From Candidatus Kapaibacterium sp. (lineage in GTDB: Bacteria; Bacteroidota; Ignavibacteria; Kapaibacteriales; UBA4661): a stretch of 33,500 nucleotides of DNA. Every line of letters starts with the position of its first letter. The first letter of the stretch is position 1. The notes beneath the pieces are model-generated. The model was not told the origin of the DNA. It worked only from the letters and a program-made list of their open reading frames with translations, and ran no database searches. Positions 1-33,500 of the stretch are shown here, piece after piece. The stretch lies in assembly GCA_025358765.1 (NCBI GenBank), contig JANYIG010000007.1, positions 1 through 33,500 on the forward strand, in the 5' to 3' direction. The position numbers and the translations under genes were made by a program.

Positions 1-838
1 AGACGAGATTATCCAACACCTGCGTGAATGCTGTATGGTCTGTCTGAGCAATTGCTGTTGCGGGCGCATTCACGGCGAGTGTGATGTGCTTGTTGTTTGC
101 ATGAAGTCTGTATTCTTCGACGATGTTCACTACAATCGGTACAACATCTACAGGTTCTACGCTGAAGGTAAAATTTCCCGTATCCAATGCGTGAAGATTC
201 AAAAGATTATCAATCAAACATACCATGCGGTCTGTCGCCAAATTCAGGTCGTCGGCATACGTCTTGAGTTGAGCGGGCGTGATATCCGCACGTTTGCGTT
301 CTAATAACTCTGCGAGCAAATGAATGTTGGAAAGCGGGTTTTTTAGGTCGTGCGCGATGATGCCCAAAAACTCTTCACGTTCTTGGTCGAATGCCTGCAA
401 ATGCTGGTTTTGCTCAGTGATGATGTCGCTGTACTGCTTGATTTTGAGGTGCGTCCGTACGCGTGCCAGCAATTCCGCAAAGAAAAACGGCTTGGTGATA
501 TAGTCTACCGCCCCAGCCTCAAAACCACGCACGATATCTTCGGTGTCGGTGCGAGCCGTGAGGAAAATTACAGGAATATGTGCCGTTTGCGGGTCGCTTT
601 GCAATTGCTTGCAGACTTCAATGCCGTCAATATCGGGCATTTGTACGTCGAGAAGTATCAAATCTGGCATCTGCGCCGCAACGGAATCCAAAGCGCCTTT
701 ACCGTTGGACGCAACGTTTACACTGTAGCCATTTTCGCCCAAAATACTGCCCAACACCTGAAGGTTGCGTGGGATGTCGTCCACAATGAGGATGAGTGGT
801 TCGCGGTTGCTCGATGAGAGATACGAAGAGTGTTCCAT
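1..838 (-). CDS. Response regulator receiver-histidine kinase, 3' part cut by window edge
   Basis: The minus-strand reading from the ATG at 838 stays open to the window edge, giving 279 residues with no stop. An N-terminal receiver domain (about residues 14-130) has the acidic pair D20/D21, phospho-acceptor D64 in LILLDVQMPD and K116 in YITKPF. A short coiled linker leads to a HisKA domain with the H-box FLGIIAHDLKNPLS (H163). The catalytic ATPase domain must lie beyond the left edge. There is no membrane segment, so this is a cytoplasmic kinase whose activity is probably set by phosphorylation of its own receiver. It starts 51 bases after the stop of the large hybrid kinase on the same strand, so the two are probably co-transcribed and the hybrid kinase may feed this receiver (inference). 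Domain assignment is sure; the signal is unknown. Confidence 0.9.
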   Translation of the reverse strand, partial: MEHSSYLSSSNREPLILIVDDIPRNLQVLGSILGENGYSVNVASNGKGALDSVAAQMPDLILLDVQMPDIDGIEVCKQLQSDPQTAHIPVIFLTARTDTEDIVRGFEAGAVDYITKPFFFAELLARVRTHLKIKQYSDIITEQNQHLQAFDQEREEFLGIIAHDLKNPLSNIHLLAELLERKRADITPAQLKTYADDLNLATDRMVCLIDNLLNLHALDTGNFTFSVEPVDVVPIVVNIVEEYRLHANNKHITLAVNAPATAIAQTDHTAFTQVLDNLV

Positions 839-17700: not shown

Positions 17701-20595
17701 ATGGCAAAATTTCTCCTCTTCGATGCAATGGGACTTGTGTTCCGTGCTTATCACGCCATGAGCAAAATGGGCTTGCAAGCTCCCACCGGAGAGCTTACTG
17801 GCGCAGTGTTTGGATTTGGAAATATTCTTTCCACAATTTTGAACAAGGAAAAACCGGATTACGTCTGCGTTGCGTTCGATACCGCCGCGCCCACGTTCCG
17901 CCACGAACGTTTTGAGCAGTATAAGGCTCACCGCCCCGAATTTCCTGCTGACCTCGCGCCACAACTACTTCGCATTAAACAGATGGTGTCGCTGCTGAAT
18001 CTGACACAAATCGAAATGCCCGGTTTTGAGGCGGATGACATCATCGGAACGCTTGCACTTCGTGCGGCTGCTTCGTCCGACGTAGATGTATTCTGCGTTA
18101 CGAGCGACAAAGACTATTGCCAACTTGTTACCGACCGAGTGAAATTGCTCAAGCCCGGTTTTACGATGGGCGAGTATGATGTGATGGATATTGAAGGCGT
18201 TCACAAAAAATTCGGCGTTGCACCCCACCAAGTAATTGACGTATTAGCACTTATCGGCGACGCTTCCGATAACGTACCGGGCGTGAAAGGCATTGGCGAA
18301 AAAACGGCGATTCCACTCATACAGCAATATGGTTCACTTGAAGCGGTGTATGAACATTTGCCAGAAATTAGCAAAGAAGCCGTTCGCAAGAAACTTGAAG
18401 CTGACCGTGAGATGGCGTTTCTCTCAAAAGAGCTTGTCACTCTTGACCTCAACGTGCCAGTGGATCTGCATCTGGAGGATTTTGTCCGCCGGAAACCCGA
18501 CACGGAGACGCTTCGGGAGTTTTTCTTGTCGTTGGGCTTTCGCACAATGCTGGGAAAATTTATTGCCCCAGAAGTAAACGCTTCTACTGCTGCGAGGGCA
18601 GGAGCACAAGAAAACATAGCAATACCGCCCACACAAACTTCATTAAAAACCATTCGTGATACGCCGCACGAATACATACTTGTGGATACGCCGGAAAAAC
18701 TCAACGTTATGGTGGAAGAACTGCAAAGTGCCTCACTACTTTCATTCGACTCTGAAACGACATCACTGGATATGATGAACTGCGATATCGTGGGTATGTC
18801 CTTTGCAAGCAAAGAAGGGCGGGCATTCTACGTTCCTTTCACAATAAATGAGAATGATGTACAACCGCAAACGTTGGAAGAATCAAGGGAATCGGAGCAA
18901 TCAGAAAAATTAACCATACAGGGGAATTTATTCGATGCTCCCCAATCTACACAAATCAAACCCATTGCCCATTACCCATTATTGATTGCTGCTTCCCTTA
19001 AGGCTCTTCTTGAGAACCCTCTGATTCCAAAGTGCGGACAAAACGCCAAGTTTGATGCGGTAATTTTGCGGCGTTATGGTGTAGATGTGTCACCAATTGC
19101 CTTTGATTCAATGCTCGCAAGCTACGTGCTGAACTCCGACATGCAGCACGGCATGGATGCGCTCGCTCAAAAATGGCTGGAATACAAGCCTGTGCCAATT
19201 TCGGATTTGATTGGCGAGAAGAAAAAAGAACAAATTTCTATGCGTGACGTGGCTGTGGAACGTGTGGCAGAATACGCCGCCGAAGACGCAGACGTGACGC
19301 TCAAACTCGCCTTGCGTCTGCGAGAGGAATTGCAAAAAGAAGGTTTGTTGGATTTTGCCGAGCGAGTGGAGTTTGCTGTGGTGGAAGCACTAACGGAAAT
19401 GGAATTTAATGGTGTTGCGATTGATACACCTGCGCTCGGTACGATTTCTGTTTTATTGAAGCAACAAATGGATGACCTTAAACGCCAGATTTTCCGCGAG
19501 GTGGAGCAATATGGCGTTGGTGAATTTAATGTGGATTCGCCCAAACAACTCGGCGAAATTTTGTTCGAGCGTATGAAAATTCCGCCTCTCAAAAAGACAC
19601 AAACTGGCTACAGCACAGATGCTTCAGTGCTGGAAGAGCTTTCGGAAAATTATCCGATTGCCGAACTTATGCTTGAATACCGCCAATATGCAAAACTTCA
19701 ATCTACCTATGTTGAAGCGCTTCCAAAAATGGTCAATGCCCGAACGGGGCGTGTTCATACAACGTTCAATCAGACCATTGCTGGTACGGGGCGTTTGTCT
19801 TCGACCGATCCGAACCTGCAAAATATACCGATTCGCACCGAACTTGGGCGCGAAATCCGTCGAGCATTCATCGCTCAAAAGCCTGAAATGGTCTTGCTTT
19901 CAGCTGACTATTCGCAGATTGAATTACGAATTATGGCGCATATTTGTGGCGACGAAACGTTGGTGAACGCCTTTAAGAATGGCTTAGATATTCATGCGGC
20001 AACGGCAGCAACGCTCTTTGGCGTGGGTGTTGACCACGTAGAGCGCGACCAGCGCCGCGTTGCAAAGACGGTGAATTTTGGTGTGATGTACGGGCAGGGC
20101 GCATTTGGTTTGTCGAAACAACTTAAAATCTCGCGTTCCGAGGCAAAGGAGATTATTGATAATTATTTCATCAAATATCCACGCATCAAAGAATATATTG
20201 ATTCAACTATCGCCAAAACCCGCGAAATAGGCTACGCTCAAACGCTTATGGGTAGGCGGCGTTATTTTTCTGACATCACGAGCCATAACCGCGTAGCTCG
20301 CACTGGCGCTGAACGTGCGGCAATCAATATGCCGATTCAAGGCACGGCGGCGGAGATGATGAAACTCGCAATGGTGGCAGTTTACCGAGCAATGAAGGAG
20401 CAAAACCTCCAGTCAAAGATGCTCTTGCAAATCCACGACGAGTTAGTGTTCGAGATGATTCCTGAAGAAGAGTATATCCTTCCAAACCTTGTCAAATCTT
20501 GCATGGAAGGTGCGATGGCGCTCGGCGAAGGAGAAAATGCTGTGCCTATTGTGGTGGAATTAGGAACGGGCAAAAACTGGGCAGAAGCACATTAG
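17701..20595 (+). CDS. polA: DNA polymerase I
   Basis: Family A polymerase for Okazaki-fragment maturation and repair, 964 residues from the ATG at 17701 (MAKFLLFDAMGLVFRAYH). All three domains are present. The 5'-3' exonuclease (about 1-290) includes GFEADDIIGTLA and SDKDYCQLV. The 3'-5' exonuclease (about 325-545) keeps its metal-binding D350 and E352 in FDSETTSLD, so proofreading is probably intact. The polymerase has motif A LLSADYSQIELR (D736), O-helix RRVAKTVNFGVMYG (K789, Phe at 793) and motif C QIHDELVFE (D913). A loop of about 45 residues (384-428) interrupts the exonuclease domain; it is acidic and low-complexity, and its end is encoded by the CCCATT repeat at 18961. The stop is only 23 bases from the convergent anmK stop. 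Confidence 0.98.
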   Translation: MAKFLLFDAMGLVFRAYHAMSKMGLQAPTGELTGAVFGFGNILSTILNKEKPDYVCVAFDTAAPTFRHERFEQYKAHRPEFPADLAPQLLRIKQMVSLLNLTQIEMPGFEADDIIGTLALRAAASSDVDVFCVTSDKDYCQLVTDRVKLLKPGFTMGEYDVMDIEGVHKKFGVAPHQVIDVLALIGDASDNVPGVKGIGEKTAIPLIQQYGSLEAVYEHLPEISKEAVRKKLEADREMAFLSKELVTLDLNVPVDLHLEDFVRRKPDTETLREFFLSLGFRTMLGKFIAPEVNASTAARAGAQENIAIPPTQTSLKTIRDTPHEYILVDTPEKLNVMVEELQSASLLSFDSETTSLDMMNCDIVGMSFASKEGRAFYVPFTINENDVQPQTLEESRESEQSEKLTIQGNLFDAPQSTQIKPIAHYPLLIAASLKALLENPLIPKCGQNAKFDAVILRRYGVDVSPIAFDSMLASYVLNSDMQHGMDALAQKWLEYKPVPISDLIGEKKKEQISMRDVAVERVAEYAAEDADVTLKLALRLREELQKEGLLDFAERVEFAVVEALTEMEFNGVAIDTPALGTISVLLKQQMDDLKRQIFREVEQYGVGEFNVDSPKQLGEILFERMKIPPLKKTQTGYSTDASVLEELSENYPIAELMLEYRQYAKLQSTYVEALPKMVNARTGRVHTTFNQTIAGTGRLSSTDPNLQNIPIRTELGREIRRAFIAQKPEMVLLSADYSQIELRIMAHICGDETLVNAFKNGLDIHAATAATLFGVGVDHVERDQRRVAKTVNFGVMYGQGAFGLSKQLKISRSEAKEIIDNYFIKYPRIKEYIDSTIAKTREIGYAQTLMGRRRYFSDITSHNRVARTGAERAAINMPIQGTAAEMMKLAMVAVYRAMKEQNLQSKMLLQIHDELVFEMIPEEEYILPNLVKSCMEGAMALGEGENAVPIVVELGTGKNWAEAH
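18961..18980. repeat. Three CCCATT direct repeats inside polA
   Basis: CCCATT occurs at 18961, 18968 and 18975 in a seven-base rhythm and is read as part of PIAHYPLLIA. It sits at the edge of a low-complexity loop in the 3'-5' exonuclease domain. The composition resembles intergenic iterated repeats rather than conserved coding sequence. Confidence 0.5.
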
Positions 20596-27872: not shown

Positions 27873-28472
27873 TTACTGCTTGATTACTTTCGCAATAGCT
27901 TCCAGCGCTGCCGTTGGGTCTGCACCCAAGCCAATTTGTTGATATGCTATTTCGCCTTTGACATTTAAAATAGTAATGATGTTAGAATGAGCAAAATCAC
28001 CATTTGCGTCCTGTTTGTAGTTCACACCCAGCACCGCCGCAAACCGTCGCACGTCGAGTTTCGAGCCTCGAAAGAGCGTCCAATGCTTTAGGTCTAAGCC
28101 GCTTTGAGAAGCAAATTCACGTAGCTTTTTAGGAGTGTCGCGTTTTGTATCGAATGAAAATAATAGAAAATCAATGTTATTTTTTTGTTCAGAAGGTAGT
28201 CGGCGCTCCAAAGCCTGCATGTCGGCTGCAATGCGTGGGCAGGCGTATTTACAGCTTGTGAATACCATCGCTACTACGTGGATTTTTCCTTTAAGTGTAT
28301 CCAGCGAAACCGTTTGACCATCTTGATTTGTCCATATAGAGCCAAGATTATAGATGGAGGCATCGCTCAATTGTTGTTTTGCTTTTGTTTGTTTTGACGA
28401 TGACTGTGCCGCCACATCATGAATGTTGAGAACAAGATGTACGACGACAGCAAGCAATAAAAAGGTTTTCAT
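27873..28472 (-). CDS. Sco1/SenC-family copper chaperone, signal-peptide form
   Basis: Thioredoxin-fold copper-delivery protein of 199 residues. The N-terminal hydrophobic signal MKTFLLLAVVVHLVLNIHDV ends near AAQ and has no lipobox. The copper-binding pair is in FTSCKYACPR (C74, C78), and the third ligand is H162 in DFAHSNIITI. The fold markers SFDTKRDTPKKL and WTLFRG are present. It starts 31 bases after the nirV stop. With nirK and a heme-copper oxidase-like gene in the same run, it probably inserts copper into one of these enzymes. This is the second Sco of the cluster; the other is a lipoprotein. Confidence 0.93.
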   Translation of the reverse strand: MKTFLLLAVVVHLVLNIHDVAAQSSSKQTKAKQQLSDASIYNLGSIWTNQDGQTVSLDTLKGKIHVVAMVFTSCKYACPRIAADMQALERRLPSEQKNNIDFLLFSFDTKRDTPKKLREFASQSGLDLKHWTLFRGSKLDVRRFAAVLGVNYKQDANGDFAHSNIITILNVKGEIAYQQIGLGADPTAALEAIAKVIKQ

Positions 28473-28503
28473 AGTATTATTCGGAATAAACTCTCATAAA
28501 CGA

Positions 28504-29310
28504 TTATCTATCTTTCGCACAACGAAATCCCAGATTTGCTGTTGTATAATAAGCTTTCAAGCTGCCTCGAAACCCGTAACGCATAAACGCTGCATAGTCA
28601 GATGGATTTGCCGAGAATACTGAAGCCGAACCGCAAAAAAGTGTTCTTTCCAACCCTGAATCCCCGCGCGACTCGCCGCTTGTGAGCGAGGAGTTAAAAT
28701 CTTCCACCCACTGCCACACCAAGCCATGCAGGTCAAACACGCCAAAATCGTTTTTGAACGTCGAACCCACACGCGGCAGCACAGAAAGCGTCGGTTTGCT
28801 ATACCATTCCAAAATGTACTTAGCGGGGTTGCCTTTCGTTTCTGGAAGCGATCGTTTATAGGCGGCTGCAGCAAGCTCCCATTCCGCAGTTGTAGGCAGT
28901 CGTTTGCCCCGCCACTCAGCATATGCGCTCGCTGCAAACCACGATACATTCACCACCGGAGCATCAGGTGGTGCTTTGTCTCCCAAAATTGTATCGCCTT
29001 GCCAGTGTTTTAAGTATGTGGAATCCGCAAAAATACCCTTAACACGCGAGCGCTGCCACGAGGAATTGTGTTTGACAAATTCCAAAAAGTCGCGGTTTGT
29101 CACCAGATACACATCTAAATAAAACCCTACAACACGTATTGATTCAGTCTTCCCATCTTGCTTGTAGAGTGGCTTGTACGTGCCTGCCGGAATAAAAGCC
29201 ATCGCACCCGTTGCGGAAGGCGCTACAGTGAACACTGGCATTGGTTTACCGAAGGTACTCACAAACACAAGGGAACAGCCAAGAATTATGGAAGTATAGG
29301 TTTTCATCAT
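28504..29310 (-). CDS. nirV: NirV-like formylglycine-generating-enzyme-family protein
   Basis: 268 residues with an N-terminal signal-like segment (MMKTYTSIILGCSLVFVSTF), then a single SUMF1/FGE-sulfatase fold domain: FIPAGTYKPL, VVNVSWFAASAYAEWRGKRL, PTTAEWELAAAA, FGVFDLHGLVWQWVEDF and the C-terminal GFRGSLKAYYTTANLGFRCA. Proteins of this family encoded next to copper nitrite reductase genes are called NirV (first described beside nirK in Rhodobacter). Here the gene lies in the same run as nirK, with only the hemolysin III gene between, which supports the name. FCGSAS replaces the usual RGGSW, so oxidase activity on a sulfatase is unlikely. Its biochemical role is not established; a part in maturing periplasmic NirK is inference. 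Confidence 0.85.
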   Translation of the reverse strand: MMKTYTSIILGCSLVFVSTFGKPMPVFTVAPSATGAMAFIPAGTYKPLYKQDGKTESIRVVGFYLDVYLVTNRDFLEFVKHNSSWQRSRVKGIFADSTYLKHWQGDTILGDKAPPDAPVVNVSWFAASAYAEWRGKRLPTTAEWELAAAAYKRSLPETKGNPAKYILEWYSKPTLSVLPRVGSTFKNDFGVFDLHGLVWQWVEDFNSSLTSGESRGDSGLERTLFCGSASVFSANPSDYAAFMRYGFRGSLKAYYTTANLGFRCAKDR

Positions 29311-30083: not shown

Positions 30084-31595
30084 TTATTCGTTCGCCGCTG
30101 TTGCTTTTTTGCTACTATTGCGTATTTTTTTGACTTCTTCCGGCGAAACCGCATCACCGCCATTACCCCAACTTGAACGTACAAATGTCAGCACGGCTGC
30201 AATGTCTTCGTCAGTCAAAGTTTGGGCTGGCATTACATTATTGTACGGTTTACCGTTTACTTGAACCGTGCCTTGTAAGCCCTTCAGCAGTACCTCGATG
30301 GCACGTTGTTTGTCTGCCATGAGGTAATCAGACTTTGCAATCGGCGGAAACACGGTTGGAACGCCCTGTCCTTCGGCTTGGTGACACGCCACGCAGTTTG
30401 CTGTAAAAATTGTTTTACCTTTAGTCTTTAACTCTGCTTGCGACAGAGGCGCAGAAGGTTTTGCGGCTTCTTCGGGCATTTTTTGGATAGCTCCACCTTC
30501 GGGCAAATACACAAAATCACTTTGTTTGCCGGAGTAAATTTCCTTGTTTTCTGCGCCTTCTACCTTTATCATTCCAATCGCTCCCTTGTTGAAGGCACGG
30601 AAAATTGAGTGATCCACCAAAATATACGTACCCGGCACTTCGCATTTGAATTCTACAATTGCTGAACCACCCGCCGGAATGAGAGTTGTTTGCACGTTTT
30701 TCTGGTTCGGAAGCACACCACCTTCGGTATAAACTTTGTCAAAAATTTCACCGATAATATGGAAAGATGACACCAGATTTGGTCCACCATTGCCCACAAA
30801 CACCCGAATTGTTTCGCCAACCTTTGCTTTGACAGCGTTGTCGCCTGCAAGAGCGCCGACAGAGCCGTTAAATACTACATAGTCAGGGTCTTCGTGGACG
30901 GCTTTTTCCATAGAAAACGGCTGTACGCCAGCATCGCCATACTTGCCTTCCGTGTAGAACTCACTTTGCACTACGTACAATTCCTTATCTACTTTCGGTA
31001 GCCCTTCTTTTGGCTCCACGAAAATCAAACCATACATGCCGTTGGCAATGTGCATCCCAACAGGCGCAGTGGCACAATGATACACGTAGAGACCCGGATT
31101 GAGCGCCTTAAACGAAAACTGTGAGCTGTGTCCGGGTGCAGTAAATGAAGCCGCCGCCCCGCCGCCTTGACCTGTAACAGCGTGCAGGTCAATATTATGC
31201 GGCATTTTGCTTGAGGGGTGGTTGTTCAAATGAAACTCCACATCGTCACCCTCACGGATGCGGATGAACGGACCGGGTACGGTGCCGCCAAATGTCCAAA
31301 ACGTGTATTCCACGCCGTCTGCGAGGCGTTTAACGACTTCGCGGGTTTCCAAATGAATTATCACTTTTTTAGATTCCGTGCGGTTTGTGGGCAGCGGTAC
31401 TTCCGGTGCGTAGGTCATCGGTAGCACTTCATCTCCTGTGGCAGAAACATTTTTTGCCGTAGATGATTTGTCGCCATTACGGTTATCAACCTCCGCTGAC
31501 GGCTTGCAACCCCCAGTAAACCCAGCAAACAATGTCATAACAAGTAACAAGAGTATGGCTGTTCGGCGGGAAATTTGTGAATAAAATGCATTCAT
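30084..31595 (-). CDS. nirK: Copper nitrite reductase NirK fused to a C-terminal cytochrome c domain
   Basis: Reduces nitrite to nitric oxide in the periplasm. 503 residues; the N-terminal signal ends in GFTGGC, so Cys30 is probably lipidated and the enzyme tethered to a membrane. Two cupredoxin domains follow. Type 1 copper ligands: H133, C174, H182 and M187. Type 2 copper ligands: H138, H173 and H329. The catalytic pair is D136 (in HNIDLHAV) and H279 (in SSFHIIGE). After a proline/alanine-rich linker (about 375-390) comes a class I heme domain with CVACH (C401, C404, H405) and Met455 as the likely axial ligand. This is the three-domain heme-tethered NirK layout, in which the cytochrome passes electrons straight to type 1 copper. 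All active-site residues are intact. A Sco gene lies 38 bases upstream. Confidence 0.97.
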
Positions 31596-31633: not shown

Positions 31634-32257
31634 TTAATAAGGTTGATTGCTGGCAATATGTTTCAAAGCATCACGTACTGTTTCCGGTTCCACACTGCTG
31701 CCTTCATATTCCTTGCAAACACCTCCACGAGCGTCTATCAGACAAATGCGGTCGGTGTGATCAATAAAATACACCTTCTCGCCTGTTTCAGTCAGCGTTG
31801 TGTAAGTTTTTTGTGTAATAATGTCATACCGTTGCATGAGCGAATCCACTATATGTGTATTGCCTGTCAGAAACATCCAGCGACCATTTTTCACCGCTTC
31901 GTCCAATCCATGCAGCGCAGCGTATTCCAGTAGATGGCTTGGGGTATCTCGTTCGGGGTCGAACGTTAGTTCCACAAAGACGATGTTTGTATCCTGTATT
32001 TGGTGTGCAATCCGCTTCATTGTGCTGGTAATTATCTCGCATACGCCCGCGCAGTGTGTGTAGATGAACCCTACAACGAGCGTTTTGCCGCGCAAACCAT
32101 CCGGAAACCTGATTGAAGTACTATCCTGCGCTATAAGTGCAAAACCTGTGTCTTGTACTGTTTGCTCAACGGACTGTTCAGCAGATTGTTTAGCGCAGCC
32201 CGCGAGCAGAACAATTGCTGCGATAAGATACGATGCGGCACAAGTCATTCTCTTCAT
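31634..32257 (-). CDS. Sco1/SenC-family copper chaperone, lipoprotein form
   Basis: 207 residues; the signal ends in the lipobox LLAGC, giving lipidated Cys21. The short linker is rich in Gln and Glu. The thioredoxin-like domain carries THCAGVCEI (C69, C73) and the distal copper ligand H167 in [25 protein letters not shown] is the usual strand-turn. It differs from the other Sco of the cluster in sequence and anchoring, so the two may serve different copper sites, for example Cu-A/Cu-B of the oxidase and the centres of NirK (inference). It lies between the truncated hemoglobin gene and nirK, with gaps of 44 and 38 bases, consistent with one transcript. Confidence 0.93.
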
Positions 32258-32301: not shown

Positions 32302-32670
32302 TTATCGAACAATCTGCAAATACATGGAGGTGGCAATTGCCTGAGCGCGAGCTTTTGCCTCCGTTGCACGTCGTCCCTCAAAAAGCTCATCTACCGCATT
32401 GTGGAACAACAGAAGCCATCGGTCAAAATGAACGGCAGTGAGCGTCATCATGCCGTGCAATTGCTGATGCTTTGCCATAGGATTGCCACGGTAGCTGTTC
32501 GTTCCCAATAAAAGCGTTTCCCAGAAATCCGTTACTATAGGCAGATGACTCTTGAGGTTGATTTTGGCAACATCTGTGAAGATAAAGCCTATTATTTCGT
32601 CCTGAAGGGCTTGCGAGTAGAAATGCGTGAGCAAACACTCTATATCATGCCGTGTTTCAATGTCTTTCAT
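32302..32670 (-). CDS. Group III truncated hemoglobin
   Basis: 122-residue single-domain 2-on-2 globin. Start MKDIETRHDIECLLTHFYSQ; then IGFIFTDVAKINLKSHLPIV; the E-helix region is DFWETLLLGTNSYRGNPMAKH. The F-helix His lies in KHQQLHGMMTLTAVHFDRWL, a stretch very characteristic of group III. The C-terminus ends in SMYLQIVR. Likely role: binding or detoxifying NO or handling O2 near the nitrite reductase; group III members have few worked-out functions. The ATG is only two bases after the stop of the oxidase-like gene, so translation is probably coupled. It is intact, unlike the second globin at 26774-27207. Confidence 0.94.
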   Translation of the reverse strand: MKDIETRHDIECLLTHFYSQALQDEIIGFIFTDVAKINLKSHLPIVTDFWETLLLGTNSYRGNPMAKHQQLHGMMTLTAVHFDRWLLLFHNAVDELFEGRRATEAKARAQAIATSMYLQIVR

Positions 32671-32672
32671 GG

Positions 32673-33500
32673 CTACTTTCCTTGTGGTTGCGAGCTTGGC
32701 TGTTGGGTATCTTCTGGAGTATCGGGCGCAGGGCTGAGCGGCGAATACCCCGGAGCATTGTTAAATGTCCCACGTGCAACGTCGTACAACACTGGTGTGT
32801 AGGCTATCACAATCATCACGACGGCAATCAGAATCCAAGGCTTGAGGTTCAAGAAGAGTTTTGCTGGCTCATCGTGATATGCCTCCGAAAGCGGGAATTC
32901 CAACACTTCTTCGCGGACTTTTTTCGAGAATGCGGTTGTGAAGAATACAATAAAGTATATCAACATCGCCAGCGACATGACACACGCACCAATCAACGTG
33001 ATATAGACATATACCGACCAATCAGCGCGGTAAAGCGGGCTATCGGGGTTCATATAGCTTTGCCCCAAATTCGTGCGTCGCGGTTCTCCGTGCAAACCTC
33101 CACGCATTAAGCCTGACGAGAACGTGAACAGCCCAACCATCCATAAATACGGAACCGAAAGTACGAGCGACTTCAAGCGGAGATCCTTGCCACCCACTTT
33201 GACCACAAGATATAAACTCATGCCTAAAAAGGCGAGGAACACTGGTCCGGCAACACCCAATGTCGCCTTCCAGATGATTTCACCACTCCTCGCATTCAGC
33301 GCAAGGAGCTGCCCTTTTTCGTCCTGGCTGGCAATATACAGGCGATCAGCTGAGGATTCGAGCGAGCTGATTTTGAAACCCTCAAGCCGATTAAACCACA
33401 GCACATTGCCCGTTTGCGCATCGCAACAGGTGATCGTCTCATTCCTCGCGAGTAACACCTTGCCAGCCTCAGTGATCTGAAAGAGTGGCTCAGCCACAAG
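32673..33500 (-). CDS. PQQ-type propeller segment joined to C-terminal helices of a ba3-type heme-copper oxidase, 5' end outside window
   Basis: The frame is open to the right edge; 275 residues are visible. The first 80 or so contain two PQQ-type beta-propeller repeats, CDAQTGNVLWFNRLEG and LNARSGEIIWKATLG, with the Trp-docking pattern. From residue 82 (VAGPVFLAFLGMSLYLVV) four membrane helices follow. With GLHGEPRRTNLG, FPLSEAYHDEPAKLFLN and IVIAYTPVLY they match the last part of subunit I of ba3-type (B-family) heme-copper oxidases or related NO reductases. In that family, GHFH-type heme ligands should stand just before VAGPVFLAF; here the propeller takes their place. The C-terminal tail is Pro/Gln-rich. 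As read, this ORF cannot ligate heme through that helix. It may be a true fusion, a rearranged remnant or an assembly join near 33260. Confidence 0.75.
   Translation of the reverse strand, partial: LVAEPLFQITEAGKVLLARNETITCCDAQTGNVLWFNRLEGFKISSLESSADRLYIASQDEKGQLLALNARSGEIIWKATLGVAGPVFLAFLGMSLYLVVKVGGKDLRLKSLVLSVPYLWMVGLFTFSSGLMRGGLHGEPRRTNLGQSYMNPDSPLYRADWSVYVYITLIGACVMSLAMLIYFIVFFTTAFSKKVREEVLEFPLSEAYHDEPAKLFLNLKPWILIAVVMIVIAYTPVLYDVARGTFNNAPGYSPLSPAPDTPEDTQQPSSQPQGK

What the first reader, a model, noticed from the sequence alone, without database searches (positions are those of the whole stretch)
32673..33500. Propeller sequence fused directly to the end of a heme-copper oxidase, skipping the heme-ligand helix
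One open frame passes from two PQQ-type propeller repeats into the last helices of a ba3-type oxidase (or related NO reductase) subunit I. The switch is at about 33255-33265. The GHFH-bearing helix that should precede VAGPVFLAF is absent. By hand count the last 200 bases are about 53% G+C, against about 46% in a 120-base sample of the oxidase part, which hints at two sources. Either this is a new propeller-oxidase fusion heading a nitrite/NO operon, or it is a recombination scar or misassembly.
Basis: partly seen in the sequence, partly recalled or inferred. Interest (0 to 1): 0.65.

Follow-up and report, generated by a model that had tools for sequence, protein, structure and literature searches.

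The report
Chimeric contig tip on oxidase gene
The apparent propeller-oxidase fusion is most likely an assembly artefact: 246 bases of an unrelated propeller gene are stuck onto the broken end of a contig inside an ordinary ba3-type cytochrome oxidase gene, whose missing front half lies intact on another contig of the same genome.

Summary
One open frame (32673-33500, minus strand) passes from two PQQ-type propeller repeats into the last helices of a ba3-type cytochrome c oxidase subunit I, and the GHFH heme-ligand segment is missing. The switch is exact, at 33254/33255. But base 33500 is the physical end of contig C87, so the "fusion" is only the outermost 246 bases of a contig. Contig C269 of the same genome carries the regulator, subunit II and the front of subunit I. 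It reads unbroken through GHFHMT|VAGPVFLAF and ends inside the gene. Its last 239 bases match window 33254-33016 at 233/239. The two contigs complement each other: joined, they give a 587-residue subunit I in the operon order coxB-coxA-SCO seen in ten relatives. No match in about 390 same-class genomes spans the junction with an oxidase; every oxidase match starts exactly at the breakpoint. The downstream genes occur once, and the propeller DNA occurs nowhere else in the assembly. The breakpoint lies mid-helix, three residues after a heme ligand, so the product could not be an oxidase. Best reading: a chimeric contig tip at a site of strain polymorphism. A real rearrangement in a minor strain cannot be excluded without reads. 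Low interest.

The parts
33255..33500 (-). foreign tip of the contig: two PQQ-type propeller repeats, open at the contig end
   Evidence: PF13360 3.7e-9; no other copy in the genome; no close relative in 395 genomes of the phylum, best matches 26-39% identity
33254..33255 (-). junction (breakpoint); identity with contig C269 starts here and there is none before it
32673..33254 (-). 3' part of coxA, ba3-type cytochrome c oxidase subunit I (193 residues, VAGPVFLAF onwards)
   Evidence: 7deg 6.9e-49; 52-64% identity to ten relatives
33016..33254 (-). overlap with the end of contig C269 (C269:19690-19928), 233/239 identical, 4 of 6 differences silent
32302..32670 (-). bacterial-type globin, next gene of the operon
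   Evidence: PF01152 7.6e-7
31634..32257 (-). SCO1/SenC copper chaperone; a SCO gene follows coxA in all ten relatives examined
   Evidence: PF02630 2.5e-19; synteny
30084..31595 (-). copper nitrite reductase (NirK) with C-terminal cytochrome c domain
   Evidence: TIGR02376 4.7e-112, above cut-off; PF00034 1.5e-15

Best explanation
Contigs C269 and C87 (the window) are the two halves of one ordinary ba3-type oxidase operon: Rrf2 regulator - coxB - coxA | coxA - globin - SCO - nirK. The assembly broke inside coxA, where two sequence variants about 2.5% apart are present. On C87 the broken end was extended by 246 bases of an unrelated propeller gene, making a chimeric contig tip. The reading frame stays open across the join by chance. 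There is no propeller-oxidase protein. Shown: the overlap, the intact copy, the single copy of the downstream genes and the operon order in relatives. Inferred: that the join arose during library preparation or assembly, and that the two variants are strains.
For: The window is a whole contig and the tip is at its physical end. C269 ends inside the same gene, overlaps by 239 bases at 233/239, and reads unbroken GHFHMT|VAGPVF. Only one copy of the downstream part and only one ba3-type front half exist. The joined protein has 587 residues against 570-617 in relatives, and both halves are similarly close to each relative. All ten relatives examined keep coxB-coxA-SCO in order, with no propeller match there. 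In the class, all 17 oxidase matches other than the genome's own begin at query residue 81, with frames of 594-653 aa. The V of VAG aligns to chain residue 389 of Thermus ba3 (1ehk), so the breakpoint falls just after heme ligand His386 (His numbering from my own knowledge), in the middle of helix X, where a domain fusion makes no structural sense. Chimeric contigs are a known result of closely related strains in metagenome assembly graphs (PMC7299287).
Against: No reads or coverage were available, so the join itself was not tested. The junction shows no shared bases on the C269 side, so no repeat explains it; a short shared stretch on the propeller side cannot be checked because the propeller's true continuation is unknown. 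The frame stays open through the join, at about one chance in three or less. That the genome is metagenome-derived is inferred from its fragmentation and is not stated by any tool.
Confidence: 0.87

Rival explanations
1. A real DNA rearrangement in one strain or in a second locus: a deletion or illegitimate recombination joined a propeller gene to the 3' part of coxA, leaving a non-functional scar, while another strain (C269) keeps the intact gene.
For: The C87 and C269 copies differ at 6 of 239 bases, mostly silent, so two biological variants probably exist. The junction has no homology on the C269 side, as in illegitimate recombination. The propeller's relatives include a propeller of the same genome (C240, 32%) and of a same-family genome (35%), so a source in the same lineage is possible.
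Against: The downstream genes exist once and C269 needs exactly this sequence as its continuation. The tip is only 246 bases long at a contig end. The rest of the propeller gene was not found in the assembly. No relative shows it.
Confidence: 0.11
2. A genuine, expressed propeller-oxidase fusion protein with a new function.
For: One uninterrupted frame of at least 275 codons.
Against: The fusion would lack the heme ligands and most of the catalytic subunit, and would enter the oxidase in mid-helix. The intact gene front exists in the genome. No relative has the fusion among 391 class members.
Confidence: 0.02

Closest known systems
ba3-type cytochrome c oxidase subunit I (Aquifex 7deg; Thermus thermophilus 1ehk)
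   Same: the oxidase part aligns over nearly its whole length; with C269 it gives a full-length subunit I with GHFH, next to a CuA-domain subunit II and a SCO chaperone
   Different: on the window contig the first two thirds of the gene are replaced by 246 bases of propeller
PQQ-type beta-propeller repeats (PF13360, BamB-like)
   Same: two repeats match the profile above cut-off
   Different: only two blades are present, cut off by the contig end; relatives elsewhere are 26-43% identical and were never found joined to an oxidase
Chimeric contigs of metagenome assemblies
   Same: a switch between unrelated sequences at a contig end, in a region with two close variants
   Different: not proven by reads here

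Membership tests
ba3-type cytochrome c oxidase subunit I | sequence match to solved ba3 subunit I over the C-terminal helices | tested here: met
   7deg 6.9e-49, 1ehk 1.4e-8
ba3-type cytochrome c oxidase subunit I | heme-ligand histidines (GHFH) in helix X | tested here: not met
   absent in the window frame as assembled; present in C269 immediately before the overlap
ba3-type cytochrome c oxidase subunit I | CuA-bearing subunit II encoded next to it | tested here: met
   on C269, directly upstream of the gene front: COX2 PF00116 2.1e-11
Nitric oxide reductase (NorB/qNOR/eNOR) | no His-Tyr pair (HPxxY) in helix VI, as oxidases have | tested here: not met
   GHPLVYFW motif in C269 coxA, and a subunit II of oxidase type beside it; meaning of the motif from own knowledge
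Genuine propeller-oxidase fusion | full-length fused frame conserved in relatives | tested here: not met
   no match spans the junction with an oxidase in 391 class genomes; the two matches running past it (G444, G415) are metallophosphatase-like proteins with a propeller, by reading of their frames
Chimeric contig tip | reads do not support the junction | not testable with these tools
   no reads held
Chimeric contig tip | the same gene continues correctly on another contig | tested here: met
   C269 overlap 233/239 and unbroken frame

The most novel reading that the evidence does not exclude
A minor strain of this species really carries a propeller gene recombined into the 3' end of its ba3 oxidase gene, possibly expressed as a membrane-anchored propeller that uses the oxidase's last helices as anchor.
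Probability: 0.03. Interest if true: 0.35.

Novelty: not a real feature. Interest (0 to 1): 0.05.

Why it matters
It matters mainly as a caution: an open frame at a contig end that joins two unrelated families should be checked against the other contigs of the same genome before it is called a fusion. If the fusion were real it would be a new domain arrangement, but it could not work as an oxidase.

Tried and rejected
1) Looked for the source of the propeller DNA in the same genome, in 395 genomes of the phylum, in genome contigs and in viral contigs: no close match, so its origin stays unknown. 2) Composition and codon use: weakly unusual (codon score at the 8th percentile, third-position G+C in the top 2%), not decisive for a foreign origin. 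4) Two matches that run across the junction position (G444, G415) were read: both are metallophosphatase-like proteins ending in a propeller, with no oxidase. 6) The left end of the window contig was searched for a similar near-identical overlap with another contig: none.

Full report
What is there. Its first 82 codons hold two PQQ-type propeller repeats (PF13360). The remaining 193 are the C-terminal helices of a ba3-type cytochrome c oxidase subunit I, closest among solved structures to the Aquifex enzyme 7deg (6.9e-49; organism name of 7deg from own knowledge). The switch is at 33254/33255.

The end of the window is the end of the contig. The window is contig C87 of a 4.86 Mb draft genome in 362 contigs, and C87 is exactly 33500 bases long. 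The propeller part is therefore only the last 246 bases of a contig.

The missing half is on another contig. A search of the same genome with the fused protein found contig C269, which ends in the same gene. C269 carries an Rrf2-type regulator, a subunit II with a COX2 (CuA) domain, and the front of subunit I. It reads through NTSWMPGHFHMT-VAGPVFLAFLGMSLYLVV without a break until the contig stops at base 19928. Its last 239 bases match window 33254-33016 at 233 of 239 positions; four of the six differences are silent. Before that point the two contigs share nothing.

The two contigs complement each other. The part of C87 downstream of the overlap occurs only once in the genome, and there is only one ba3-type front half: one search lists one other COX1 gene, on C113, but it aligns at only 28% over part of this front half, so it is a different type. 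Joining the C269 front (394 residues, up to GHFHMT) to the C87 back (193 residues) gives 587 residues, against 570-617 in ten relatives. The front is 64-74% and the back 52-64% identical to each relative. In all ten relatives coxB, coxA and a SCO gene follow each other in this order, and none has a propeller match there.

Survey. Of 391 genomes of the class, all 17 with an oxidase match other than the genome itself start at query residue 81, at the breakpoint, and lie in frames of 594-653 residues. Matches to the propeller part are weak (29-43% identity) and separate. The two that run well past the breakpoint, in G444 and G415, are metallophosphatase-like proteins with a propeller and no oxidase, by reading of their frames.

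Anatomy. The V of VAG aligns with chain residue 389 of 1ehk. In Thermus ba3 the heme ligands of helix X are His384 and His386 (own knowledge), so the break lies just after the second ligand, inside a transmembrane helix. This is not a place where domains are expected to be joined in nature, and the product could not be an oxidase.

Origin of the tip. The 246 bases occur nowhere else in the assembly. The genome's other propellers (C25, C240, C156, C70, C52) are not the source; the C240 one is 32% identical. No close relative was found in 395 genomes of the phylum, in genome contigs or in viral contigs. Composition is mildly unusual but not decisive.

Mechanism, shown and inferred. Shown: the overlap, the intact copy, the single downstream copy, the conserved operon. 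Inferred: two strains about 2.5% apart broke the assembly in coxA, and a chimeric read or a wrong graph path extended the broken end of C87 into a propeller gene. Chimeric contigs caused by closely related strains are described in a review of metagenome assembly (PMC7299287); in one benchmark 1-2.2% of contigs were chimeric (PMC7329831). Without reads a real rearrangement in a minor strain cannot be excluded; I give it about one chance in nine.

Verdict.

Noticed in passing
window 30084-31595 (-): Copper nitrite reductase with a C-terminal cytochrome c domain, in the same gene run as the ba3 oxidase; tethered NirK-cytochrome fusions are known from other bacteria (own knowledge).
   Followed up: partly
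window 32302-32670 (-): A bacterial-type globin sits between coxA and the SCO gene; none of the ten relatives examined has a match to it at this locus.
   Followed up: partly
window 27873-29310 (-): A second SCO gene next to an FGE-sulfatase-domain protein, further down the same strand.
   Followed up: no
L075 (G444:C258) and L076 (G415:C33): Proteins of about 610-640 residues joining a metallophosphatase-like front to a PQQ-type propeller; two similar copies in one family of the class.
   Followed up: no
window 2-838 (-): The other end of the contig also cuts a gene, a response regulator joined to a histidine kinase by reading of the frame; no near-identical overlap with another contig was found there.
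   Followed up: partly
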